Positions 1,605 through 19,420 of a DNA stretch of 64,000 nucleotides are shown one piece after another. Location: assembly GCF_000328665.1 (NCBI RefSeq), contig NC_019972.1, positions 1 through 64,000 of the forward strand, given 5' to 3'. Both the position numbers and the translations under genes were made by a program. Within the stretch, counting starts at the first letter, position 1. Each line of letters starts with the position of its first letter. The DNA comes from Methanomethylovorans hollandica DSM 15978. Its GTDB lineage: Archaea > Halobacteriota > Methanosarcinia > Methanosarcinales > Methanosarcinaceae. The notes under the pieces were generated by a model, which worked only from the letters and a program-made list of their open reading frames with translations, did no database searches and was not told the DNA's origin.

Positions 1605-1638
1605 TTTCTTCATTGAATCAATATCCTGCTACTATTTT

Positions 1639-2627
1639 CATATTTACATTGGCAATGAAGTGTCTACGTTTGTTGATTTTCATATTTACATTATCAATTC
1701 TATCTCTTTAAGTCTACTGGTATTGTTTTTACATTGGCAATAAGGTGTCTAGGAATTATTTACAAATTTACATTGGCAATGAAGTGTCTACGTTTGTTGA
1801 TTTTCATATTTACATTATCAATTCTATCTCTTTCAGTCTAATGGTATTGTTTTTACATTGGCAATAAGGTGTCTAGGAATTATTTACAAATTTACATTGG
1901 CAATGAAATGTCTATTGTTGTTGATTTTCATATTTACATTATTAATTCTATCTCTTTCAGTCTACTGGTATTGTTTTTACATTGGCAATAAGGTGTCTTG
2001 GGATTATTTACAAATTTACATTGGCAATGAAGTGTCTACGTTTGTTGATTTTCATATTTACATTATCAATTCTATCTCTTTAAGTCTACTGGTATTGTTT
2101 TTACATTGGCAATAAGGTGTCCTGGGATTATTTACAAATTTACATTGGCAATGAAGTGTCTACGGTTGTTGATTTTCATATTTACATTATCAATTCTATA
2201 TCTTTCAGTCTACTGGTATTGTTTTTACATTGGCAATAAGGTGTCCTGGGATTATTTACAAATTTACATTGGCAATGAAGTGTCTATTGTTGTTGATTTT
2301 CATATTTACATTATCTATTCTATCTCTTTCAGTCTACTGGTATTGTTTTTACATTGGCAATAAGGTGTCCTGGGATTATTTACAAATTTACATTGGCAAT
2401 GAAGTGTCTACGGTTGTTGATTTTCATATTTACATTATCAATTCTATCTCTTTCAGTCTAATGGTATTGTTTTTACATTGGCAATAAGGTGTCTAGGGAT
2501 TATTTACAAATTTACATTGGCAATGAAGTGTCTACGGTTGTTGATTTTCATATTTACATTATCAATTCTGTCTCTTTCAGTTTACTGGTATTGTTTTTAC
2601 ATTAGCAATAAGGCGTCTAGGGATTAT
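1639..2627. repeat. 124-bp tandem repeat array, candidate replication origin
   Basis: About eight units of 124 bp. The segment ACATTGGCAATAAGGTGTC starts at 1731, 1855, 1979, 2103, 2227, 2351, 2475 and 2599, always 124 apart. Each unit carries a second related copy, ACATTGGCAATGAAGTGTC, 39 bases later, and the array opens with such a copy at 1646, giving about 16 direct iterons at alternating 39 and 85 base spacing. Unit differences are single-base substitutions. Open frames inside it arise from the repeat and are not credible genes. The iterons, AT-richness and position directly after cdc6 suggest an origin; a ParA-type centromere is the main alternative. Confidence 0.85.
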
Positions 2628-4937
2628 TTATCTTAAAAATAGATTACGAAGTATCTTTGCTATAATGCTTCTAACCGTGATTTTTGGCTTATTCTCTTCC
2701 ATTGCTAATAATTCAGTATTCGGTGTTTCAACTACTTTTTCTTGCTCAATTTCTGTTATCAGCATATCTTTTTTTGTTTCTGTTTGTTGTTTTTTCTGAG
2801 CTTCAATTTCATCTATTACTTTGAATAGGTCATAATCAATACCAAGGGAGTTAAAAATCTCAATGGATTTATTGAGTCCAAGTATTTCAATAACATCTTT
2901 TAGTGGCATTGTTTTTAAGATGTCAAGTGAATCGATTTTGTTATCATACAGCTTTTTGGATGATAATCTGTCAATGGATGTTGTTGTCATCAGAGCAAGC
3001 ATTTCATTGTTAGCACCCTTTTCAAGCATTTTCTCAATATCAGAGACAGTGCTTGTCCAGATGTTCTCTTGCATTTCCATGATTTTCCGGGAAGCGTAGA
3101 CTAACCATTTTGCTGTTGATATGGTGTTTTTCAGATCGCCTTCTCCAATTTTATAGTTCCTCATTATTGTTTCTATTGGAGTTCCATTAATCCATTCCAT
3201 TAGCATTAGAGCTGTTTTAATGCTTCCTATTTCCTGCGGGGTGATCTGGTTTATTTTGGTTGCATTTATCCACGGAATTTCGTTACTTCTTTCGATGATG
3301 ATATTTTCAATATTCTTCCTTTCGTCTGCAGTAAAGGAAGTGTTTTTCATATTTGGAGTCGAACATATTATACTCATCAAATTGAAGGGAGTAATGAATA
3401 ATGATTTTTCAATCTTGCTTGTTATTATAGATGCTGTTTCCGGGTAGATATATACTACGGATACCATTTTCCCAAAAGGAGTGGATTCTATCCTATCGCA
3501 TATTTCAATCATTTTTCTTCGATGCAGTACTTTAATACATTTCGTTGTTAAGTTCTCAAAATCAGCATCTGGGTTCTGGAATCCAAACAATGTTTTCCGG
3601 AGGAAGTGATTGATATCTTCGAGTGTATTGGCGAATTTGTTATTTATTGTAGCTAATAAATGAGTTTCAAAGTGGTTCTCTTGTGCTAGATTTGATATAA
3701 CAAGCTCTGCCTGTGCATTGATAAACGTTGCTTTGAGTTTTTCTATATCCTTTTCAGATTCAGCTATGAGTACGCTTTCTCCATATGGATCAAGATGTGG
3801 TCTTCCTGCTCTTCCGGCCATTTGTTTATAATCAAGTACGGGAATTGGACATCTTCCCTGGCCAGGATTGAATCTTTTGTAATTTCTTATAATTACTCTT
3901 CTTGCTGGTAAGTTAAGGCCTGCAGCTAGAGTGGGTGTGCAGGTTATTATTTTAATTAATCCATTCTTGAATCCTGATTCTACGATATCTCTTTGTTTTT
4001 CATTCAGGCCTGCATGGTGAAAAGCAACTCCATTTCTGATGCATTCGGATAAGATAGGGTTAGACTGTTCTTCTCTATCGAGTTCAATAGATAGTTTGTT
4101 GAGTTCTTCCCTATTCTTTTCAGTAATTAGTGGAGAGATATGCTTACTGAGTTTCTTTGCAAAATCAGAACAGCTGTTTCGACTTGTTTCGAATACAAGG
4201 CACTGCCCTCCGATATTTACGGTATCGATAGCAATATTTATTGAAGGATCATTAGTTATTGGATTTATATCAATACTGTACTTACTGAATTGTATCTTGT
4301 TCTGGAAAAAGATACCTTCTCTAAGGTCTGCTGGTCTCCAATCTGTAGTAATTAGTTCAGATTGAAGCCACCTTGCGACTTCTTCTGCATTTCCAACTGT
4401 TGCTGATAGACTGACAAATTGGATTTGAGAGTTTTTTTCTCTAAGCTTGGTCGTTACCATTTCGAGAGTAGGGCCTCTGGTCTTACATGCAAGAAGATGA
4501 ACTTCATCAATAACAACGCATGTAACATCATCAATCCAGGATGCTTCTGATCGTAGCAGAGAGTCTGCTTTTTCAGCGGTGCAAACGATGATATTACATT
4601 TTTCAAGCCACCTATTATCAGTGTTGTAGTCACCGGAAGCAATACCAGGGTTTATTCCAAGAGGAACAAAATCCTTAAAAGAGGTGTATTTCTCTTTTGC
4701 AAGAGCTCTAAGGGGAACAATGTACATTGCTTTCTTCCCTTTAGATATTGCTTTTAGCATTGCAAGTTCTGCAAGAAATGTCTTTCCGCTTGCAGTTGGA
4801 ATTGCACAAAAAACATTTTTTCCTTTAAGTAAACCCTTTTCCATACACTCTGCTTGTGGAGGATATAGGGTTGTATATCCTTTGTTCAAGTAAAAATCGA
4901 TGTAATTCTGTGGAAGGTCGAGTGTATTTATGTCCAT
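2628..4937 (-). CDS. hel308: Hel308-family DNA helicase
   Basis: Ski2-like superfamily 2 helicase of 769 residues, which in archaea acts on stalled or branched forks. Seen from the chosen start: PTASGKT near residues 47-53, DEVH at 144-147, the SAT segment SLSATVG, and motif VI QMAGRAGRP. The start MDINTL is preferred because AGGAG lies upstream of it; an in-frame extension of 21 residues has no such site. The C-terminal tail (about 60 residues after the HhH-like region) is charged and ends in a basic helix. The gene runs into the end of the repeat array. It lies in one leftward series with RPA genes, consistent with fork repair. Confidence 0.92.
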   Translation of the reverse strand: MDINTLDLPQNYIDFYLNKGYTTLYPPQAECMEKGLLKGKNVFCAIPTASGKTFLAELAMLKAISKGKKAMYIVPLRALAKEKYTSFKDFVPLGINPGIASGDYNTDNRWLEKCNIIVCTAEKADSLLRSEASWIDDVTCVVIDEVHLLACKTRGPTLEMVTTKLREKNSQIQFVSLSATVGNAEEVARWLQSELITTDWRPADLREGIFFQNKIQFSKYSIDINPITNDPSINIAIDTVNIGGQCLVFETSRNSCSDFAKKLSKHISPLITEKNREELNKLSIELDREEQSNPILSECIRNGVAFHHAGLNEKQRDIVESGFKNGLIKIITCTPTLAAGLNLPARRVIIRNYKRFNPGQGRCPIPVLDYKQMAGRAGRPHLDPYGESVLIAESEKDIEKLKATFINAQAELVISNLAQENHFETHLLATINNKFANTLEDINHFLRKTLFGFQNPDADFENLTTKCIKVLHRRKMIEICDRIESTPFGKMVSVVYIYPETASIITSKIEKSLFITPFNLMSIICSTPNMKNTSFTADERKNIENIIIERSNEIPWINATKINQITPQEIGSIKTALMLMEWINGTPIETIMRNYKIGEGDLKNTISTAKWLVYASRKIMEMQENIWTSTVSDIEKMLEKGANNEMLALMTTTSIDRLSSKKLYDNKIDSLDILKTMPLKDVIEILGLNKSIEIFNSLGIDYDLFKVIDEIEAQKKQQTETKKDMLITEIEQEKVVETPNTELLAMEENKPKITVRSIIAKILRNLFLR

Positions 4938-4965: not shown

Positions 4966-4980
4966 CTGTTTGTCTTTTTT
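4966..4980 (-). promoter_or_regulatory. A-rich leader motif before hel308
   Basis: The minus strand reads AAAAAAGACAAACAG, about 29 bases before the hel308 start codon. It is one of at least nine near-identical motifs placed just before leftward genes between 5 and 16 kb. Confidence 0.55.
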
Positions 4981-6966: not shown

Positions 6967-6980
6967 CTGTTTGTCTTTTT
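6967..6980 (-). promoter_or_regulatory. A-rich leader motif before rpa, inside a small hairpin
   Basis: The minus strand reads AAAAAGACAAACAGG and is flanked by CCTGTT and AACAGG, so the A-rich segment would sit in the loop of a 6-bp stem. The rpa ATG is about 27 bases downstream. Confidence 0.5.
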
Positions 6981-11196: not shown

Positions 11197-12724
11197 TGAA
11201 CTACTGCTCCCTGCCAGCTTTCAGCTGTCGAGGAAGGAGCTTCCTACGAGTATTTGTTTCATCTCAAGATCATCCTGTTAGGAATGATCCCGATCAACAA
11301 ACCTGTTTGTCGTAGATTATCAATTATATTTTGATAGCTTGTCCACAAAGCATTGTGTTTGAAATACCTCAAGAGAATGTTTACAGAACTATTACAATCT
11401 CTATCAAGAATGTTACCACAATAACTACATTCATAAGTTCTGTCGTTAAGTGACATATTCTTGATCGTTCCGCAAACACAACATTTCTTTGAGGTATAGG
11501 ATTCATCAATTCTTATTACTCTCTTACCCAAGCTTTCAGCTTTGTAGGTTAAGAATTGAGCAAATCTTCCTATATGTCCTGAATTATGAGTACCACGATT
11601 GGTACTCCTATCTTTTTTACTTGTTTTTGGCTTAGAAGAAGCCATTTGTTTTACATCAAGTTTACCAATGATAATAGTATTAGCATCTGTATTCTCAACA
11701 ATATTTCTGGTAATTTTATGCTGGTTATCTTTGAGTTGATTAGATGATTTTCGTTTCATCCTACCAAGGTTGTTATGCAATCGTTTCCATTTTCTGCTGT
11801 TCTTCTTACAATGGTCTCTTCGGGATTGGATCTGTTGAATTTTAGGTTCCCAGTACTTATCTGGTCGTCTATTAACTAATTCATTGAATTGACCATAAGA
11901 ATTAACCATCGTTTGTTTGATTGTACCAATATCAATAGCAAGATAACAATCATTATTACTATGCTTTACTGCAGGTATTTCATATGTAATCGAAATGTAA
12001 AAGTCATTGTCTTTCTGATAAACACTAATCTGAACAATATCAGTAGCCGTACTAAATATTCTTTCTTCAAGCAGAGTAGCAGGAAGTTCAAATATCAAAG
12101 GTATTCCAGATGGATGCTTATGAGAGAGACCAATGAAAATCTTGTCTACATCAGAATACTCTACTTCCTGTTTATGGATTCGAGTATCCATAGACTTGCT
12201 TACAAGAATATTACCTTTAGTATCAGAGATCTCAAATCCTGACTGATTATAGATCATCGTAGTGAAATACTTCTTGCCTTTGAATCCAGGAGGTCTAGCT
12301 TTGACATCCTTATTCTTTCTTAGATTGAAAAAAGACCTATAATCATTGTCTAGACACTTCAGGGTTCCCTGCAATACTTTGGAATATACCCATTTATATT
12401 CAGGAAATTGTTGTTTGAGTTCGGGTAACTTGTTCTGTTGCTGAATGTAGCTGATCTTTATTTTGTTCTTATATGCATCATGACGTTCTTTCAAACCAAA
12501 GTTATAGATAAGTCTGCACTTTTCAGATAGATTCCATAGAACAGATTCCTGTTCCAAAGTAACATCTATCTTGATTGGTAATGTCAACTGCATACAAAAA
12601 CCCATATATTATAGCGATAATAATGTATATAAGCATTAGCATGATACTGATTTTTGTAACAAAAGTATCTTTCTCATCCCCCACCTGTCGCTACGCTCCG
12701 AGGAAGGGGACTTCTCGCTTAGAA
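11197..12724 (-). mobile_element. IS200/IS605-group element with tnpB only, copy 1
   Basis: About 1.53 kb. It begins right after TTTAAC (12725-12730 on the minus strand), with left border TAAGCGAGAAGTCC, and ends with a hairpin (CAGCT GAA AGCTG) and GTAGTTCA. A second copy at 13545-15064 has the same organisation, target and borders. No tnpA is present, so movement would need a transposase from elsewhere. The last 60 bases probably also form the 3' part of the guide RNA used by TnpB. Confidence 0.8.
11259..12593 (-). CDS. tnpB: TnpB RNA-guided nuclease, copy 1
   Basis: 444 residues from MQLTLPIKIDV. Seen: a basic N-terminal region, the RuvC-I aspartate in YLAIDIGTIKQ, a zinc ribbon (CCVCG ... 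CSYCG) and the last aspartate in LDRDCNSS. The usual RuvC-II glutamate position reads IIIGKLDVKQM, with glycine instead of glutamate; an alternative glutamate is present in IRIDESYTSKKC just before the zinc ribbon, as described for a branch of TnpB and Fanzor. The start is set at the M that aligns with the family's usual start. The reading frame is intact. The protein is highly similar to copy 2. Confidence 0.93.
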   Translation of the reverse strand: MQLTLPIKIDVTLEQESVLWNLSEKCRLIYNFGLKERHDAYKNKIKISYIQQQNKLPELKQQFPEYKWVYSKVLQGTLKCLDNDYRSFFNLRKNKDVKARPPGFKGKKYFTTMIYNQSGFEISDTKGNILVSKSMDTRIHKQEVEYSDVDKIFIGLSHKHPSGIPLIFELPATLLEERIFSTATDIVQISVYQKDNDFYISITYEIPAVKHSNNDCYLAIDIGTIKQTMVNSYGQFNELVNRRPDKYWEPKIQQIQSRRDHCKKNSRKWKRLHNNLGRMKRKSSNQLKDNQHKITRNIVENTDANTIIIGKLDVKQMASSKPKTSKKDRSTNRGTHNSGHIGRFAQFLTYKAESLGKRVIRIDESYTSKKCCVCGTIKNMSLNDRTYECSYCGNILDRDCNSSVNILLRYFKHNALWTSYQNIIDNLRQTGLLIGIIPNRMILR

Positions 12725-12756
12725 GTTAAATCACCGGAAATTTGTTTGTCTTTTTT
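12725..12756 (-). promoter_or_regulatory. Orphan gene leader, cut off from its gene by TnpB copy 1
   Basis: The minus strand carries CCGGAAAAAAGACAAACAAA, then TTTCCGGTGATTTAAC. CCGGAAA and TTTCCGG can pair and would present the A-rich motif in the loop. The ribosome binding site GGTGATTTAA ends at the insertion; the matching ATG is at 11195 beyond the element. Confidence 0.6.
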
Positions 12757-12772
12757 CCGGTGTTAGCTACCA

Positions 12773-12832
12773 TTAGTGATGTGTAACAGCAATTATGAAA
12801 AGAACGATGCCAATAATTGTGAAGACAATCAT
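12773..12832 (-). CDS. 19-residue hydrophobic peptide coupled to the winged-helix gene
   Basis: MIVFTIIGIVLFIIAVTHH, one membrane segment. Its ATG overlaps the stop of the upstream gene (TTATGATT), and GAGG lies 8 bases before it. It may be a membrane micropeptide or a chance frame; the overlap and binding site favour the first. Confidence 0.35.
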   Translation of the reverse strand: MIVFTIIGIVLFIIAVTHH

Positions 12833-13074
12833 AAGCATCGCCTCACATGTGTATAGTTGATGTTACCATATGGAATAGTAATATTATTAAGTTGAGCGCG
12901 TGTACGTCCAAGGATTCTCCTCTTGGTAAGTTCTATTTTACCAATGCTATGCAGATGCAATAGCTTTTCTTTTACATTCTCCAGAGGATAGCCAGATTGC
13001 TCAAGCTCTCTCAAAATTGGTGCAATAGAAGTTTCTCTTTCCGGAATGAGGTCCATTATTTGTACTTGTGTCAT
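12829..13074 (-). CDS. Small winged-helix-like protein
   Basis: 81 residues, MTQVQIMDLIPERETSIAPI at the start. The pattern of three helices with YPLENVKEKLLHLHSIGKIE followed by a basic strand resembles a small winged-helix DNA-binding domain, perhaps a local regulator. GAGGAATAA precedes the chosen ATG; an in-frame extension of 27 residues is less likely. The final codons overlap the next peptide's start. Confidence 0.5.
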   Translation of the reverse strand: MTQVQIMDLIPERETSIAPILRELEQSGYPLENVKEKLLHLHSIGKIELTKRRILGRTRAQLNNITIPYGNINYTHVRRCL

Positions 13075-13265
13075 TTTATTCCTCATTCTTTTGTTTGGCT
13101 TTTGGCTAGGTACAAAAAGACAAACTACAAGAGTGTCACAAGTGAACTCTATCAAAAAAGAATAATTGGAAAGTGCGGAACTCTACGAGTATAAGTAGAG
13201 TTCCTGTTTGTTTGAGCGACAGAAGAATGTATGCAATTTTTAGAAAATAGAAATGGAGTTTTGCC

Positions 13266-13425
13266 TCCCGATAGAAACCGAGAGGCATTTTGGGAGTTGG
13301 AGTCTGTCTAAGTTAGACTCTTGCCTGGATTGGTTCCACCTGGATTTTAACCAGGTACTATGGACCCATTGGAACCATGGTGGTGGTGGGGACTCTGCTG
13401 ATATTGCTGTAAAATACAGAGTCCC
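13266..13425 (-). other. Hairpins on the right-hand side of the structured array
   Basis: Besides the tRNA-like unit at 13332-13376, there are three stems: TGCCTC/GAGGCA (6 bp, from 13266), GAGTCT 13300-13305 with AGACTC 13315-13320 (6 bp, loop 9), and GGGACTCTG 13389-13397 with CAGAGTCCC 13417-13425 (9 bp, loop 19). A weaker inverted repeat GAAGTGG/CCACTTC spans 13463-13519. No gene is credible in 13195-13545; the plus-strand open frame there is tryptophan-rich and follows the hairpins. Confidence 0.5.
13332..13376 (-). ncRNA. tRNA-like acceptor/T-arm minihelix A
   Basis: Minus strand: GGTTCCA at 13370-13376 pairs with TGGAACC at 13332-13338 (7 bp). Directly next to the 3' strand is a 5-bp T-stem CCTGG/CCAGG with the 7-base loop TTAAAAT. 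Where the D and anticodon arms should be there are 14 bases (ATGGGTCCATAGTA) with a possible 4-bp ATGG/CCAT hairpin. The 7 + 5 stacking and 7-base loop match the top half of a tRNA. Confidence 0.5.
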
Positions 13426-13544
13426 TATGTGTTGGTTGGTAGTTACAAATTTTCCGAAGCATGAAGTGGACAGAAAATATTCTACCGTGGACCGGATAGA
13501 TAAATTTCATACCACTTCGATATCATATTACTACTCAAACTATA

Positions 13545-15064
13545 TGAACTACTCCCTCCTAATCACTTTGCAGTGATTTGAGGAAGGAGCTTCCTACGAG
13601 TATTCGTATCATTTCGGTATCATTCTGGTTGGAATAACCCCGATCAACAAACCTGTTTGTCGTAGATTATCAATTGTGTTTTGATAGCTTGTCCACAAAG
13701 CATTATGTTTGAAATACCTCAAGAGAATGTTCACAGAACTATTGTAGTCTCTATCAAGAATGTTTCCACAATAACCACATTCATATGTTCTGTCATTAAG
13801 TGACATATTCTTGATAGTTCCGCAAATACAACATTTCTTTGAGGTATATGATTCATCAATTCTTATTACTCTTTTACCCAAGCTTTCAGCTTTGTAGGTT
13901 AAGAATTGAGTAAATCTTCCTATATGTCCTGAGTTATGAGTACTTCTATGAATGCTTTTTTCATATCTACTATCCTTTGGTTCACTTGAAGCCATTTGCT
14001 TTACATCAAGTTTACCTATGATTATGGTATTAGCATCCGTATTATCGATAATATTTCTGGTAATTTTGTGCTGGTTATCTTTTAACTGATTAGATGATTT
14101 TCGCTTTATCTTACCAAGGTTGTTATGAAGCCTTTTCCATTTTCTGCTGTTCTTCTGGCAATGATCTCTTCTGGATTGAATCTGTTGGATCTTAGGTTCC
14201 CAATACTTGTCTGGTCTCCTATTCTTCAACTCTGTGAATTTTCCGTAAGAATCAACCATGCTTTGTTTCGAGACACCAATATCGATAGCAAGATAAGAAT
14301 CATTGTTATTATGCTTAACATCAAGTACTTCATAAGTAATCGAAATGTAAAAGTCCTTGTCTTTCTGATAGATATTAACCTGAACTATATCAGTAGCCTT
14401 GCTGAATATTTTGTCTTCAATCAAAGTAGCAGGTAATTCGAACTTTAGTGAAACTCCAGATGGATGATTGTGTGAGAAGCCAATGTATACTTTATCCTGT
14501 TCAGAATACTCTACTTCTGGTTTGTGTATCCTGGTATCCATGGATTTGCTCACAATAACATAACCATTAGAATCAGATATTTCAAAACCAGACTGGTTAT
14601 ATAGCATAGTAGTAAAATATTTTCTACCTTTGAATCCAGGTGGTTTTGCTTTCTTATCCTTGTTATTTCTCAAATTGAAGAACGATTTGTAATTATTATC
14701 AAGACACTTCAAGGTTCCCTGTAATACCTTGGAATACACCCATCTATAATCAGGAAACTTTTTCTTAAGTTCAGGCAACTTATTCTGTAGATTAACATAA
14801 CCTATTCTAGTCTTATTTTTGTAAGCATCCTGACGTTCTCTCAGACCAAAGTTATAGATAAGTCTACATTTCTCAGATAGATCCCATAGAACAGATTTTT
14901 GTTCTGGAGTAGTATCTATCTTAATTGGTAACGTCAACAGCATATGAAAAAACCTATATCTTATAATGAGACTAAGATATTTAAGCATTAGTATCTAATG
15001 ATAATTATTATTGAATAAGACGCATTCATCTCCCAGCTTACGCAAGGAGACTTCTGCTTAATAT
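13545..15064 (-). mobile_element. IS200/IS605-group element with tnpB only, copy 2
   Basis: About 1.52 kb, inserted after TTTAAC (15065-15070). Left border TAAGCAGAAGTCTCC; the right end has a hairpin AATCACT GCAA AGTGATT and GTAGTTCA. The hairpin sequence differs from copy 1 while pairing is retained. It has landed in the middle of a hairpin array, with tRNA-like units left on both sides. Confidence 0.8.
13609..14943 (-). CDS. tnpB: TnpB RNA-guided nuclease, copy 2
   Basis: 444 residues from MLLTLPIKID, intact. It has the same layout as copy 1: RuvC-I aspartate in YLAIDIGVSKQ, glycine in IIIGKLDVKQM, alternative glutamate in IRIDESYTSKKC, zinc ribbon CCICG ... CGYCG and the final LDRDYNSS. 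The two proteins are nearly identical in the C-terminal half and diverge more in the middle, where the surface probably contacts the guide RNA. The divergence means the copies did not arise by very recent duplication. An in-frame extension of 15 residues at the start has no binding site. Confidence 0.93.
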   Translation of the reverse strand: MLLTLPIKIDTTPEQKSVLWDLSEKCRLIYNFGLRERQDAYKNKTRIGYVNLQNKLPELKKKFPDYRWVYSKVLQGTLKCLDNNYKSFFNLRNNKDKKAKPPGFKGRKYFTTMLYNQSGFEISDSNGYVIVSKSMDTRIHKPEVEYSEQDKVYIGFSHNHPSGVSLKFELPATLIEDKIFSKATDIVQVNIYQKDKDFYISITYEVLDVKHNNNDSYLAIDIGVSKQSMVDSYGKFTELKNRRPDKYWEPKIQQIQSRRDHCQKNSRKWKRLHNNLGKIKRKSSNQLKDNQHKITRNIIDNTDANTIIIGKLDVKQMASSEPKDSRYEKSIHRSTHNSGHIGRFTQFLTYKAESLGKRVIRIDESYTSKKCCICGTIKNMSLNDRTYECGYCGNILDRDYNSSVNILLRYFKHNALWTSYQNTIDNLRQTGLLIGVIPTRMIPK

Positions 15065-15102
15065 GTTAAACATATGTCCAAAAATAGAAAAGTGAGGTAT
15101 TG

Positions 15103-15182
15103 GCTCCGGGTTGGAGATGCCCGGAGCTGGATTTAGATATTATTTGGATAGGAGAAAGACATTAATAAGGAGGTCTTTCTCC
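15103..15182 (-). other. Two strong hairpins at the left end of the array
   Basis: GCTCCGGG 15103-15110 pairs with CCCGGAGC 15120-15127 (8 bp, loop 9). GGAGAAAGAC 15151-15160 pairs with GTCTTTCTCC 15173-15182 (perfect 10 bp, loop 12). Both are far more GC-rich than the surroundings and lie in series with the tRNA-like units. Confidence 0.6.
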
Positions 15183-15200
15183 TTGGGGAGTCTGGGGGTA

Positions 15201-15233
15201 GGTTCCATCTGGAATTCAACCAGCCGTGGAACC
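15201..15233 (-). ncRNA. tRNA-like acceptor/T-arm minihelix B
   Basis: GGTTCCA (15227-15233, minus strand) pairs with TGGAACC (15201-15207). A 4-bp T-stem (CTGG/CCAG, with a G-A mismatch at its base) closes the 7-base loop TTGAATT. Only two bases (CG) separate the acceptor 5' strand from the T-stem. The acceptor stem is identical to that of unit A although the linker is not. Confidence 0.5.
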
Positions 15234-15245
15234 ACATAGGAAGTG

Positions 15246-15271
15246 GAGAGCCTGCAGGAGAACAGACTCTC
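15246..15271 (-). other. 9-bp hairpin between tRNA-like units
   Basis: GAGAGCCTG 15246-15254 pairs with CAGACTCTC 15263-15271, including one G-U pair, around an 8-base loop. Confidence 0.5.
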
Positions 15272-15279
15272 TAGCTGTG

Positions 15280-15335
15280 GGTTCCGGCAGGACTTGAACC
15301 AGCTAACCAGCAAGGAGGTATCTGGCATCGGAACC
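15280..15335 (-). ncRNA. tRNA-like unit C with canonical T-loop
   Basis: GGTTCCG (15329-15335, minus strand) pairs with CGGAACC (15280-15286), 7 bp. The T-arm is GCTGG TTCAAGT CCTGC with one mismatch and the canonical TTCAAGT loop, directly next to the acceptor 3' strand. The central 25 bases hold one small hairpin (CCAG/CTGG) in place of the D and anticodon arms. CACA follows the acceptor. An A-rich leader motif lies about 15 bases upstream (15349-15366). Confidence 0.6.
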
Positions 15336-15375
15336 ATTTGATTTTCATCTTTTTGTTTGCCTTTTTGTGTGGTGG

Positions 15376-15406
15376 AAGGAGGACTGCATCCACTACAGGC
15401 CTCCTT
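15376..15406 (-). other. 7-bp hairpin between tRNA-like units
   Basis: AAGGAGG 15376-15382 pairs with CCTCCTT 15400-15406 around 17 bases, which contain CTG/CAG able to extend the fold. It has no T-loop consensus. Confidence 0.45.
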
Positions 15407-15442
15407 TATGGTTGTGTGTTGGGTGGTACGTTCCTAAAACGG

Positions 15443-15483
15443 GGTCCTTTCCGGACTTGAACCGGATGTAGATTTTAAGGACC
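15443..15483 (-). ncRNA. tRNA-like acceptor/T-arm minihelix D
   Basis: GGTCCTT (15477-15483, minus strand) pairs with AAGGACC (15443-15449), 7 bp. The T-arm TCCGG TTCAAGT CCGGA has five perfect pairs and a canonical loop, with no gap to the acceptor 3' strand. A 10-base unpaired linker replaces the D and anticodon arms. It is the cleanest of the four units, 41 bases in all. A leader motif lies at 15499-15516 just upstream. Confidence 0.65.
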
Positions 15484-15498
15484 ACATTGATTCCATTT

Positions 15499-15516
15499 AT
15501 TTGTTTGCCTTTTTTT
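15499..15516 (-). promoter_or_regulatory. A-rich leader motif before tRNA-like unit D
   Basis: The minus strand reads AAAAAAAAGGCAAACAAA. No protein-coding start follows; the next structured feature is unit D about 16 bases downstream, so the motif also precedes non-coding units. Confidence 0.5.
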
Positions 15517-15531
15517 TGAATATTTGGAGGA

Positions 15532-15762
15532 TTAATCCTCCAATTCGCTGTAATCACAATATTCTAAATCCGGTTTTTCAAGCTCATGGAGTTCTCTTAA
15601 TTCTTCCTGGATGAGCTTTGGATCAAAGAAGTCCAGTTCTGCAAGTTGTTCATCAATACCAGCGATGTCTTCACTGATTTCAATGTGTTCTTTTTCAGTT
15701 ATTGCTTGATTGGACTTTTCTATAAGCTGTTCTCTCTTTTCGATTAGTTCTATTCTATCCAT
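15532..15762 (-). CDS. Small acidic coiled-coil protein
   Basis: 76 residues, MDRIELIEKREQLIEKSNQ at the start, almost entirely charged heptads and ending EYCDYSELED. A coiled coil is likely for residues 1-60. GTGATTCAA precedes the chosen ATG, the same as for rnhC. It may be an adaptor or inhibitor protein; no function can be named. Confidence 0.6.
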   Translation of the reverse strand: MDRIELIEKREQLIEKSNQAITEKEHIEISEDIAGIDEQLAELDFFDPKLIQEELRELHELEKPDLEYCDYSELED

Positions 15763-15777
15763 TTGAATCACACTAAT

Positions 15778-15793
15778 CTGTTTGCTTTTTTTT
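15778..15793 (-). promoter_or_regulatory. A-rich leader motif before the coiled-coil gene
   Basis: The coding strand reads CAAAAAAAAGCAAACA, with the ATG about 16 bases downstream. Confidence 0.5.
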
Positions 15794-15807
15794 GAAAATT
15801 AAATGGA

Positions 15808-16227
15808 TTAGATCATTAAAGTATAGTTGAATACATCAGTTTTTGGATTGCTAACAGTTATAGCAAGCTGAAATCCAGCTTGTAGATCATTCCGGTTTCC
15901 ATCGGTTCCCAAAATAACTTGGTCGGGAAACATTTCTTGAAGAAGGAACAGACAGGCTACAACAACCTTATCATAATGTTTTTTCCTGGTCTTACATGAA
16001 AACATTCCTGCATGATTTGGTTTTACGGTAAATGGATCACATGAATTATATGCGAATCCATTCAAAACGATTGATTTTTCAGTTACCAGCGTTTTCATTT
16101 TCCAGGGATCTTTTCCCGAAAGTACAACATTTGTACTTTCAACAATTTGTTTTACTTTTTCGGAATATGATTTGAATTTTTCTCTATCCAGTTCTCCATT
16201 AATTGTCCAATAGTGAGTAAATCCCAT
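15808..16227 (-). CDS. MGFTHYW-type phage/plasmid hypothetical protein
   Basis: 139 residues. The opening MGFTHYWTINGELDREKFK is a hallmark of small proteins often found on phages and plasmids, whose function is unknown to me. It also has TRKKHYDKVVVACLFLLQE and a C-terminal TVSNPKTDVFNYTLMI. GGTGATTTAAG precedes the ATG. It is the last leftward gene before the 3.2-kb gene-poor region, so that region probably supplies its promoter. Confidence 0.7.
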   Translation of the reverse strand: MGFTHYWTINGELDREKFKSYSEKVKQIVESTNVVLSGKDPWKMKTLVTEKSIVLNGFAYNSCDPFTVKPNHAGMFSCKTRKKHYDKVVVACLFLLQEMFPDQVILGTDGNRNDLQAGFQLAITVSNPKTDVFNYTLMI

Positions 16228-16245
16228 CTTAAATCACCACTAACA

Positions 16246-16259
16246 TTGTTTGCTTTTTT
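16246..16259 (-). promoter_or_regulatory. A-rich leader motif before the MGFTHYW gene
   Basis: The coding strand reads AAAAAAGCAAACAA, 19 bases before the ATG. Flanking ACA and TGT could form a minimal stem. Confidence 0.5.
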
Positions 16260-17608
16260 GTCTCGATGCTATAGATGTTATCTTTTGATATACACAAATG
16301 GTAGACAAACAGTATCAACTGATTGAACTATTTGAACTAGAAATATGACTAAATATTAAAGAAACATACATGGAATCAGCAATCAACATTTAAATTTTAA
16401 CTACAATAAAATCATATATTATTTAACTGTAAGAGCTACAGAAATCTAGTAAATTCAGATTCACAGTTTAAATAAAATACAGAATTTATTACAATCAACA
16501 CTGCAATTTTATTAAGCCATTCAACAAAAAACTAGTAAAATGTTCTGGCGTATAAATGGCTCTATTTTTGTTCGTAACTTCTATAATTATCATGTATAAT
16601 GGATTGATAAAATTTATACTCTTTACAATGCCAAATTTCTAAATTTCTGCATGTTCTCAGCAAACTACCTTAATAAGTATCATGTCGATTTTATGAATAA
16701 TTGAATTGTATCCTATACAAGAAAAAGTTAATTTAAACGAATTAATTGATGTAACTACTACATAAAATGATTATGTCTTAAAACACGCAATTTTCACTAT
16801 GTTCTACTAATCATCATTATTTTCATTCAAATCCTTAAAATTAAATGTATGTTTGTAATGACAAGTGACTAAAATAATTTATGTCATAAAAAAACTAAAC
16901 TATACTGTATTGCCAATCTTAAAGACAAATGGTACTAAATTTCTTAAAAGAACCAATTAATAAAAGTAGTTATATTAGATACTTATTATACATGTTTAAT
17001 GTCCCAAAACAAAGTTTAATTCAATATTCAATATACTTTTAGTGTATATACTTGTTAAAACCGACTCGTTTTTAGATCCATCTTTATTTTATCTATTAAA
17101 ATCGTAACAGTAGATTATATAATTAATTTTAAAAGACCCGCTTAACCTCAGAATACAAAACCGTAAAAATTAATACATTTTTTTACTAGAGTCTATTAAT
17201 TCATAGTATAGTTAAATAGCAAAAAAATAAAAATTAATATTTAAATATTAAAGTAAAAAATATATCTTAAAAAATATGTACATACTTAATTAGTACAACT
17301 TCCTCAAAACAGTAATAAACTCAAAAGATGTACAATGTTTCCAATACAAACCAACTATACTAAAAACATACTTTGAACCAATAATATAAATGAACACTTG
17401 TTTTAAGATAGCTATCTGATTCCTAAGAAGAAGTTTCTTCAAAACAAAAGGAACTCTTTCATTTATTACACAAAAAGATTAAATAAAAACAACATGTACC
17501 ATCTTTTAAAATCATCTCATGTAAGGTAAACAATCACAATTTATCGATAAAAAAATAAAATTCATAAACATATAAATCAAAATAATCATTCTTTCATCCT
17601 TTCTAAAA
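16260..17608. other. Gene-free AT-rich region, left part
   Basis: Long A and T runs, no open frame with a convincing start, and no tandem repeat that I can see. The plus strand is G-poor (in 17281-17340 I count 11 C and 5 G). Genes point away on both sides of the wider 16.2-19.5 kb region. Confidence 0.5.
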
Positions 17609-18054: not shown

Positions 18055-18350
18055 TTACCAGAGAAAAAATCTTTGGGGTCCTATGACCAATCGCACAATA
18101 ATCCGAGAAGACTGAGTTTCCCCAATCTCCTAGATTTCCACCGGCTCGAGGTGAGTTCTTTGCGAGGGCTTGATCAATCCGTTCCCGATGGTCGCTAGTT
18201 ACTTCGGTTTCTAGCTTCACAGAAAAATGGATAAGGCACAAAGGTCCGATGGTCGTTGACTACTTCGGTTATCAGCCTCACAGGAATATGTGCAGCGAGT
18301 GATGGAGACACTCATAGAAGATTCCGGGGTTAATCCCCCGGGATCTTCTC
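18055..18350 (+). ncRNA. Structured non-coding RNA of about 300 nt, family unknown
   Basis: A GC-rich island in very AT-rich DNA. Visible pairing: GGTC/GACC 18077-18088 or the alternative TTGGGG/CCCCAA (18073-18078 with 18120-18125); CACC/GGTG near 18140-18154. Two 61-base repeats each read CCGATGGTCG, stem, CACAG: GCTAG ... CTAGC (18194-18215) and GTTGA ... TCAGC (18255-18276), both capped by AC-UUCG-GU with a 2 x 2 internal loop. Stem bases differ between copies but still pair. Then GAGTG/CACTC (18297-18313) and a long GC-rich terminal hairpin 18317-18348. I do not see SRP RNA or RNase P RNA signatures. Confidence 0.65.
18317..18348 (+). terminator. GC-rich hairpin at the 3' end of the structured RNA
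   Basis: GAAGATTCCGGGG pairs with CCCCGGGATCTTC around TTAATC, with one wobble pair, followed by the pyrimidine-rich TCTTCTC. Confidence 0.55.
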
Positions 18351-18359
18351 TTCTCAAAC

Positions 18360-19420
18360 GCAACAAATTTAATTACAGTTAATTAAAATAAGTTAGCTAA
18401 GTACATTCTAAAAGAAATCCGAATTTTTATACTCAATATGTAAAAATGCTATTATCCACACATGTGGATATAATTACTCGGCACAAGATTTATTATTACA
18501 CAGTTCCTTTTACGTAAAAGATATTCTAAAGAATTAAAATATATTTTCTTAAATTAAAATCAATTTCTAGTATACGATTAGTTTCATCATCACATTTAGA
18601 CTTATCAAATTATCTACTAAAAAATCGAATTAATACTACGTAGTTTAACTAGCAGAAATTCTTGATATATAGAAAATACTCCCAGTTTAACAATATGAAT
18701 AAAATATGAATGCTTAAAATCCTGAAAAATCCGAATATGGACAGTTACAATTCACAACGATTTGATATTAATAAATTAATACTCAAAATTAATCCAATAC
18801 GCATTTTAAAAAAGTAAGACAAATTTAAATTCAAATACACAGTTCAAAATAAATATACCCTATTCTAATCAAATTAAAAAACATACTTCGCTGTTTTTTT
18901 TACTATTCCTTTTTGCTATAAATTTAGATCTCAAAATGATAAAACAATACCTTTAGAAAAATCAAATCAATATCCAAAACATATTTAGATAATTTTTAGA
19001 TATACAAATAACAAGACACATTTTCACATGTGTAAATTCACACACCAATGTCTCCAAAATTTAATATTGTATAATGTTAACTAATTGTGCTGACATAACC
19101 ACTAAATTATTTAATGTGCTAAATTATCAGGGAATCATTTAGAGCAAAACAACTCGAAAAAACAGAATATAACTTTTCAAATATGTTCGCGTTTTCTGCT
19201 GTATATTTGTTAAAGTTGTGTGTCCGTTACAAATAACAATGTATAACTTATATTAGATTTGATCCGATAGTACATACATAATATATAAACAAAAACTATC
19301 ATTTTATTTATAAATAAATCATCTTACACTATCTAAAACAACCACCACGATGTATAAATATAATCCAAACAATTTATATTTGAACATTGAAAATACTGGT
19401 GAATAACTTCACACAAACAT
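18360..19420. other. Gene-free AT-rich region, right part
   Basis: No credible open frame or repeat. A- and C-containing runs dominate the plus strand. It probably holds upstream control sequence for the rightward 668-residue gene and could include replication or partition sites that cannot be recognised by eye. Confidence 0.45.

What the first reader, a model, noticed from the sequence alone, without database searches (positions are those of the whole stretch)
13332..15483. Four tRNA half-molecules: acceptor stem plus T-arm without D or anticodon arms
On the minus strand at 13332-13376, 15201-15233, 15280-15335 and 15443-15483, a 7-bp acceptor-like stem is stacked directly on a T-stem (5 bp in two units, 4 pairs plus one mismatch in the other two) with a 7-base loop. 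Two loops are the canonical TTCAAGT and two are degenerate (TTAAAAT, TTGAATT). The D and anticodon arms are replaced by 2, 10, 14 or 25 bases. Two units share one acceptor sequence yet differ in linkers. The constant 7 + 5 + 7 geometry is hard to get by chance. They could be tRNA mimics that bind RNase P, the CCA enzyme, elongation factor or synthetases, processing signals, or decayed tRNA genes. No known family that I can name fits.
Basis: partly seen in the sequence, partly recalled or inferred. Interest (0 to 1): 0.85.

Follow-up and report, generated by a model that had tools for sequence, protein, structure and literature searches.

The report
tRNA-like minihelix array on archaeal plasmid
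A large plasmid of a methane-producing archaeon carries four short RNA-type structures that copy only the upper half of a transfer RNA, probably as cutting signals for the cell's tRNA-processing enzymes, and a similar element turns up, conserved, in viruses of other archaea.

Summary
Four minus-strand units (15483-15443, 15335-15280, 15233-15201, 13376-13332) each have a 7-bp acceptor-like stem, all Watson-Crick, stacked on a 5-bp (two with one mismatch) T-stem and a 7-base T-loop. Linkers of 10, 25, 2 and 14 bases replace the D and anticodon arms. About 0.0007 such units are expected by chance in this stretch, and five of twelve pairs changed on both sides. The window is the start of a 285,109-bp plasmid, by size pMETHO01 of Methanomethylovorans hollandica. 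The units sit in a hairpin-rich non-coding array split by an IS605-type TnpB element. Two follow, at the same 18-base distance, a gene-leader motif concentrated on this plasmid. No host tRNA shares their acceptors. I found no copy of the array elsewhere. A model of the units did find a 48-base acceptor/T-loop element, conserved between diverged flanks in five Geoglobus/Archaeoglobus-type elements, three of them named pleomorphic viruses. Best reading: t-element-like signals for RNase P and tRNase Z that cut a plasmid transcript around its hairpins. The structure is shown; transcription and cleavage are not. Main rivals: decoys for tRNA enzymes, or decayed repeats.

The parts
15443..15483 (-). 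Unit U4: 7-bp acceptor-like stem, 10-nt linker, 5-bp T-stem, loop TTCAAGT
   Evidence: folds alone to exactly this shape, -16.1 kcal/mol, z -4.05
15280..15335 (-). Unit U3: 7-bp acceptor-like stem, 25-nt linker, T-stem 4 bp + T-T mismatch, loop TTCAAGT
   Evidence: T-arm competes with a linker hairpin
15201..15233 (-). Unit U2: 7-bp acceptor-like stem, 2-nt linker, T-stem 4 bp + G-A mismatch, loop TTGAATT
   Evidence: folds alone to this shape, z -3.84
13332..13376 (-). Unit U1: 7-bp acceptor-like stem, 14-nt linker, 5-bp T-stem, loop TTAAAAT
15502..15513 (-). Leader motif AAAAGGCAAACA, 18 nt before the first acceptor base of U4
15354..15365 (-). Leader motif AAAAGGCAAACA, 18 nt before the first acceptor base of U3
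15376..15406 (-). Hairpin between U4 and U3 (AAGGAGG...CCTCCTT)
15246..15271 (-). Hairpin between U3 and U2 (GAGAGTCTG...GCTCTC)
15150..15183 (-). Hairpin after U2, 11-bp perfect stem
15103..15127 (-). Second hairpin after U2 (GCTCCGGG...CCCGGAGC)
13463..13518 (-). Imperfect hairpin between the IS element and U1
13389..13425 (-). Hairpin 12 nt before U1 (GGGACTCTG...CAGAGTCCC)
13298..13318 (-). Hairpin after U1 (GAGTCT...AGACTC)
13263..13284 (-). Second hairpin after U1 (GCCTCTCGG...GGGAGGC)
13177..13204 (-). Third hairpin after U1, 10-bp perfect stem
13545..15070 (-). IS605/IS200-type element with TnpB (13609-14988) that interrupts the array; its ends are inferred from matches at plasmid 255884-256000

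Best explanation
The units are t-element-like minihelices, that is, tRNA-shaped processing signals. Proposed mechanism: the minus strand is transcribed, at least partly from starts set by the plasmid leader motif just before U4 and U3; each unit folds into an acceptor stem stacked on a T-arm; the host's RNase P cuts before the first acceptor base and tRNase Z cuts after the base that follows the stem; this separates the transcript into short hairpin-bearing RNAs and frees the downstream small reading frame at 12829-13086. Shown: the structure, its selection, the array, the leader spacing, and the presence of RNase P RNA, tRNase Z and the CCA enzyme on the host chromosome. Inferred: transcription, cleavage, and any use of the released hairpins.
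For: Geometry far beyond chance. Every acceptor change among units is compensated: 5 of 12 pairs have double changes, and sliding the partners destroys the signal. Loops vary only at positions 56 and 59 and keep U54, U55, A57, A58 and U60; position 56 is the base that would pair with the D-loop, which is absent here. All four units have T just 5' of the stem, as do 19 of 45 host tRNA genes as called, and more where ARAGORN starts one base early. Most host tRNA genes, like the units, encode no CCA. The host has archaeal RNase P RNA, tRNase Z and the CCA enzyme on the chromosome, and a real tRNA-Cys stands just before its 5S rRNA. Literature: t-elements are cut by RNase P and tRNase Z in Haloferax (PMC4326828); RNase P cleaves acceptor/T-stem/T-loop hairpins (PMC11143913). 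The unit model finds an acceptor/T-loop element in archaeal viruses that is conserved while its flanks diverge, and a model built from those viruses alone picks U4 as its best hit on the plasmid, E 0.004.
Against: No transcript or cleavage data were available. No homologous array was found in the 112 family, 238 class or 393 phylum genomes searched, in IMG/VR or in the GTDB contigs, so function is not supported by conservation of this locus. The U3 T-arm is not the minimum-energy fold, and two T-stems carry a mismatch. The segments that would be released have no clear antisense target on the plasmid. A 65-codon reading frame runs through U3 and U2.
Confidence: 0.45

Rival explanations
1. Decoys: the units are stable tRNA mimics that bind tRNA-handling proteins (RNase P, tRNase Z, the CCA enzyme, T-loop modifying enzymes or a tRNA-cutting toxin) and hold them away from tRNAs, to the plasmid's benefit.
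For: Several copies in one place, a T-loop signature kept in all four, strongly structured surroundings with folding z near -6.
Against: Small copy number; linkers and two T-stems drift; no plasmid gene was found by these models that would make use of such a decoy, though most plasmid genes were not annotated here.
Confidence: 0.17
2. Relics: duplicated copies of a tRNA-like hairpin with no present function, decaying by drift in a plasmid region that collects insertions.
For: Two mismatched T-stems, variable linkers, an IS605 insertion inside the array, no relatives elsewhere.
Against: All 28 acceptor pairs are intact despite three columns that changed, each on both sides; no parent tRNA in the host; leader spacing of exactly 18 nt kept at U4 and U3.
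Confidence: 0.2
3. Attachment-site or tRNA-gene fragments left by integration, as in halovirus HF2 whose tRNA-like gene is its attP (PMC8707807).
For: Archaeal elements often carry 3' parts of tRNA genes; HF2 is a documented case (PMC8707807).
Against: The DNA of the U2-U4 region matches nothing else in the host genome, no host tRNA shares the acceptors, both acceptor strands are present, and there are four diverged copies.
Confidence: 0.04
4. Part of small protein genes: the leader motif and start codons drive short reading frames, and the structure is incidental.
For: The motif precedes many plasmid genes; a 65-codon frame starts at U3 and crosses U2, with weak codon bias, z 2.1.
Against: The frame read from the leader start codon differs between U4 and U3 relative to the shared T-arm (sequence); such a frame arises in about 10% of shuffles; no family matches it; protein coding does not explain compensated stems.
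Confidence: 0.08
5. DNA-level hairpins, for instance a replication, transfer or recombination site.
For: Hairpin density is the highest on the plasmid.
Against: The tRNA T-loop signature on one strand, with changes only where a T-loop tolerates them, is an RNA property; the plasmid carries Cdc6 and MCM and a separate 8 x 124-bp iteron array at 1633-2630.
Confidence: 0.06

Closest known systems
Archaeal t-elements (tRNA-like processing signals, Haloferax volcanii, upstream of 5S rRNA; PMC4326828)
   Same: tRNA-like structure outside a tRNA gene, in an archaeon that has RNase P and tRNase Z
   Different: Four diverged copies in a plasmid array, interleaved with hairpins and not next to rRNA; cleavage not shown
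RNase P acceptor-stem/T-stem/T-loop model substrates (reviewed in PMC11143913)
   Same: Same minimal architecture, with the D and anticodon arms missing
   Different: Those are designed molecules; these are natural, with linkers of 2-25 nt at the missing-arm site
TMERs of murine gammaherpesvirus 68 (tRNA-like element followed by hairpins, processed by tRNase Z; PMC4838037)
   Same: tRNA-like elements alternating with hairpins in a mobile genome
   Different: TMERs are transcribed by Pol III and yield microRNAs; no common origin is suggested
tRNA-like attP of halovirus HF2 (PMC8707807)
   Same: tRNA-like sequence on an archaeal mobile element
   Different: HF2's matches real Halorubrum tRNA genes; these match no host tRNA
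48-49-nt acceptor/T-loop element of Geoglobus/Archaeoglobus pleomorphic viruses (found here; BK065156, BK065157, BK065158)
   Same: 7-bp stem directly stacked on a 5-bp/7-nt T-loop hairpin, T at -1, roughly 20-30 nt before a gene start
   Different: Single copy, has an extra 4-bp hairpin, acceptor sequence unrelated; homology with the plasmid units not shown

Membership tests
Archaeal t-element | tRNA-like acceptor/T-arm structure outside a tRNA gene | tested here: met
   not called as tRNA
Archaeal t-element | Cleaved by tRNase Z and/or RNase P at the stem ends | not testable with these tools
   Enzymes present in the host; cleavage needs an assay
Archaeal t-element | Adjacent RNA whose end is matured by that cleavage | tested here: inconclusive
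   Hairpins lie next to every unit, but no known RNA family
tRNA gene | Cloverleaf with anticodon arm | tested here: not met
   ARAGORN 0 genes in window; no Rfam tRNA match
tmRNA | tRNA-like domain with tag reading frame | tested here: not met
   ARAGORN tmRNA search negative
Split (trans-spliced) tRNA half | Only one acceptor strand per half, partner half elsewhere | tested here: not met
   Both acceptor strands in each unit
tRNA-type attP | Identity with the 3' part of a host tRNA gene | tested here: not met
   No match in host DNA or tRNAs
TMER-like tRNA/hairpin cassette | tRNA-like element followed by hairpins in one transcript, released by tRNase Z | tested here: inconclusive
   Order of unit then hairpin is met; transcript and release not testable

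The most novel reading that the evidence does not exclude
Archaeal plasmids and viruses share a class of minimal tRNA-like RNA elements (acceptor stem plus T-loop arm, no anticodon) that they use to borrow the host's RNase P and tRNase Z. The M. hollandica plasmid has expanded it into a cassette array that releases hairpin RNAs, and Geoglobus-type viruses keep a single intercistronic copy.
Probability: 0.2. Interest if true: 0.85.

Novelty: new variant of a known kind. Interest (0 to 1): 0.6.

Why it matters
If the units are cut, they show natural, stand-alone tRNA minihelices used as processing signals by an archaeal mobile element, a shape known mainly from designed RNase P substrates and from t-elements near rRNA. 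It would make the question of what RNase P and tRNase Z need for recognition testable on natural substrates with 2 to 25 bases in place of two arms and with C56 replaced. The viral element found along the way suggests that such elements may recur in archaeal viruses.

Tried and rejected
DNA similarity of 12600-16300 in plasmid and phage records: nothing. Model R1 in 112 family, 238 class and 393 phylum genomes: apart from the four units and the G324/G328 element, the hits inspected were real tRNAs of about 71-75 nt or fragments of tRNA-Met, plus two singletons, G060 inside a permease gene and G100 over the end of a TPR gene, taken as chance. Pattern scans of IMG/VR and GTDB contigs: seven hits; the six unrelated ones checked lie in long open frames and are taken as chance, the seventh duplicates one of them. 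Relatives of the neighbouring 139-aa gene: none. A related element in G126 shares the 1014-aa protein at 38% but gave no unit, only tRNA-Met. Antisense targets of the spacers on the plasmid: none clear. The T-arm-like hairpin at plasmid 271190 was considered as a fifth unit and left as a lead: 6 of 7 acceptor pairs and 61 nt between, fold z -1.2.

Full report
WHERE IT IS. The window is bases 1-64000 of a 285,109-bp contig in a two-contig genome of 2,714,013 bp. The size equals that given for the large plasmid of Methanomethylovorans hollandica DSM 15978 (PMC9674854); the name of the host rests on that agreement. The plasmid carries Cdc6, MCM, an anaerobic ribonucleotide reductase, topoisomerase and two IS605-type TnpB genes.

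THE OBSERVATION. All four units are in the sequence as described. Each has seven Watson-Crick acceptor pairs, no base between T-stem and 3' acceptor strand, and a seven-base loop. The T-stems have 5, 4, 4 and 5 pairs. The linkers are 10, 25, 2 and 14 bases.

CHANCE. In first-order Markov versions of the local sequence a strict unit appears 0.00067 times per 907 bases of one strand, and 0.041 times if the loop rule is dropped; four are present. A looser search of the whole plasmid finds six places: these four, one true tRNA-Gln and one other; random plasmids give two to four. The loop rule was written after seeing the units, so the value without it is the safer one.

SELECTION ON STRUCTURE. Aligned, the four units have five of twelve pairs with changes on both sides and 95.8% of cells paired; no shuffle of 500 reached the covariation score, and sliding the partner by one column lowers pairing to about 60%. 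All acceptor changes are compensated. Loops are TTCAAGT, TTCAAGT, TTGAATT and TTAAAAT. In tRNA numbering they differ only at 56 and 59. Position 56 pairs with the D-loop in a real tRNA (established knowledge), and there is no D-loop here, so freedom at 56 is what one expects of a T-loop that stands alone. This is inference.

SURROUNDINGS. The units lie in a hairpin-rich non-coding stretch of higher G+C (0.45-0.50 in the richest 200-base bins, against 0.35 for the window). Folding energies are about six standard deviations below shuffles on both sides of the IS element. The 2-kb bin from 14000 has the most perfect hairpins on the plasmid. In transcript order: U4, hairpin, U3, hairpin, U2, two hairpins, [IS605 element], two hairpins, U1, three hairpins, then a small reading frame. 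U4 and U3 each follow the motif AAAAGGCAAACA by exactly 18 bases. The motif, AAAARNCAAACA before an ATG, gives 19 pattern matches on the 285-kb plasmid and 4 on the 2.43-Mb chromosome, and usually lies about 27-32 bases before gene starts. So U4 and U3 begin where a plasmid gene would. Whether the motif is a promoter was not tested.

WHAT IT IS NOT. ARAGORN and Rfam find no tRNA or tmRNA in the window. None of about 45 host tRNA genes shares the acceptors, and the U2-U4 region has no second copy in the genome, which speaks against an attachment site. Both acceptor strands are in each unit, so these are not split tRNAs.

RELATIVES. No second array was found. The search of 393 genomes of the phylum did return a 48-base element in two species of one genus (G324, G328; E about 2e-4 each). 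The same element lies in Geoglobus acetivorans pleomorphic virus 1, Geoglobus ahangari pleomorphic virus 1 and virus ThalV2. It reads GCTCCCC, a 4-bp hairpin, 3-4 bases, GCCGG TGCAATT CCGGC, GGGGAGC. It is 94% identical between G324 and G328, while 30 bases on each side are 27% and 40% identical ungapped. In virus GahPV1 the linker is one base longer, so the GCTCCCC strand is read in another frame, yet it is kept; upstream proteins fall into two unrelated groups, and G328 has another downstream gene. So the nucleotide element, not a protein, is conserved. The small hairpin has two pairs changed on both sides; the acceptor and T-stem pairs never vary and so say nothing. RNA folding gives the three-way shape for three of five and an alternative for two. 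Loop changes again avoid 54, 55, 57 and 58. T precedes the stem in all five, as in all four plasmid units. A model made only from four viral copies ranks U4 first on the plasmid, E 0.004, and U3 next, E 0.39. This is shared geometry; common origin is not shown. In the viruses a replication-origin hairpin remains possible, as a Rep gene lies downstream in two of them.

MECHANISM. Haloferax t-elements are cut by RNase P and tRNase Z and have been used to release an RNA placed between two of them (PMC4326828). RNase P accepts hairpins made of acceptor stem, T-stem and T-loop (PMC11143913). The host has RNase P RNA, tRNase Z and the archaeal CCA enzyme, all on the chromosome, and keeps a tRNA-Cys just before 5S rRNA. 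The most likely role is therefore punctuation of a plasmid transcript. Cutting would free hairpin RNAs, in outline like the viral TMERs of MHV68 (PMC4838037), though nothing points to microRNA-like products. The spacers have no clear antisense target on the plasmid.

LIMITS. There are no expression data. U3's T-arm competes with another hairpin. A 65-codon frame crosses U3 and U2; its codon bias is weak and such a frame arises in about 10% of shuffles. Four copies at one locus in one plasmid are a small sample, and they are related to each other by duplication.

Noticed in passing
L146:2501-2548, L147:2501-2549, L148:2501-2548, L139:1501-1548 (-), L140:1501-1548 (-): 48-49-nt acceptor/T-loop element conserved in Geoglobus and Archaeoglobus pleomorphic viruses (three named viruses, two further genomes), roughly 20-30 nt before a gene start, between diverged flanks; no Rfam match at gathering threshold in the two loci searched.
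   Followed up: partly
window 15502-15513, 15354-15365, 15779-15790, 16247-16258, 13092-13103, 6968-6979, 4967-4978 and others on the plasmid: Motif AAAARNCAAACA stands about 16-32 nt before gene starts; 19 pattern matches on the plasmid against 4 on the roughly nine times larger chromosome. A plasmid-specific promoter or leader element is likely.
   Followed up: partly
plasmid 271261-271169 (-), L013:11169-11261: Perfect T-arm hairpin GGCGG TTCAACT CCGCC followed by ACCTTGC, with 6 of 7 acceptor pairs 61 nt upstream; possible longer tRNA-like element or a hairpin after a stop codon.
   Followed up: partly
window 13545-15070 and plasmid 255884-256000: Both ends of the IS605-type element occur about 116 bp apart at 255884-256000 without a tnpB between them, a possible MITE.
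   Followed up: no
window 1633-2630: Eight tandem copies of a 124-bp repeat next to cdc6, probably the replication origin.
   Followed up: no
window 18080-18370: G+C-rich island in a 3-kb AT-rich gene-poor stretch, with two similar segments around CGATGGTCG...CTACTTCGGTT...; possible structured RNA or DNA site.
   Followed up: no
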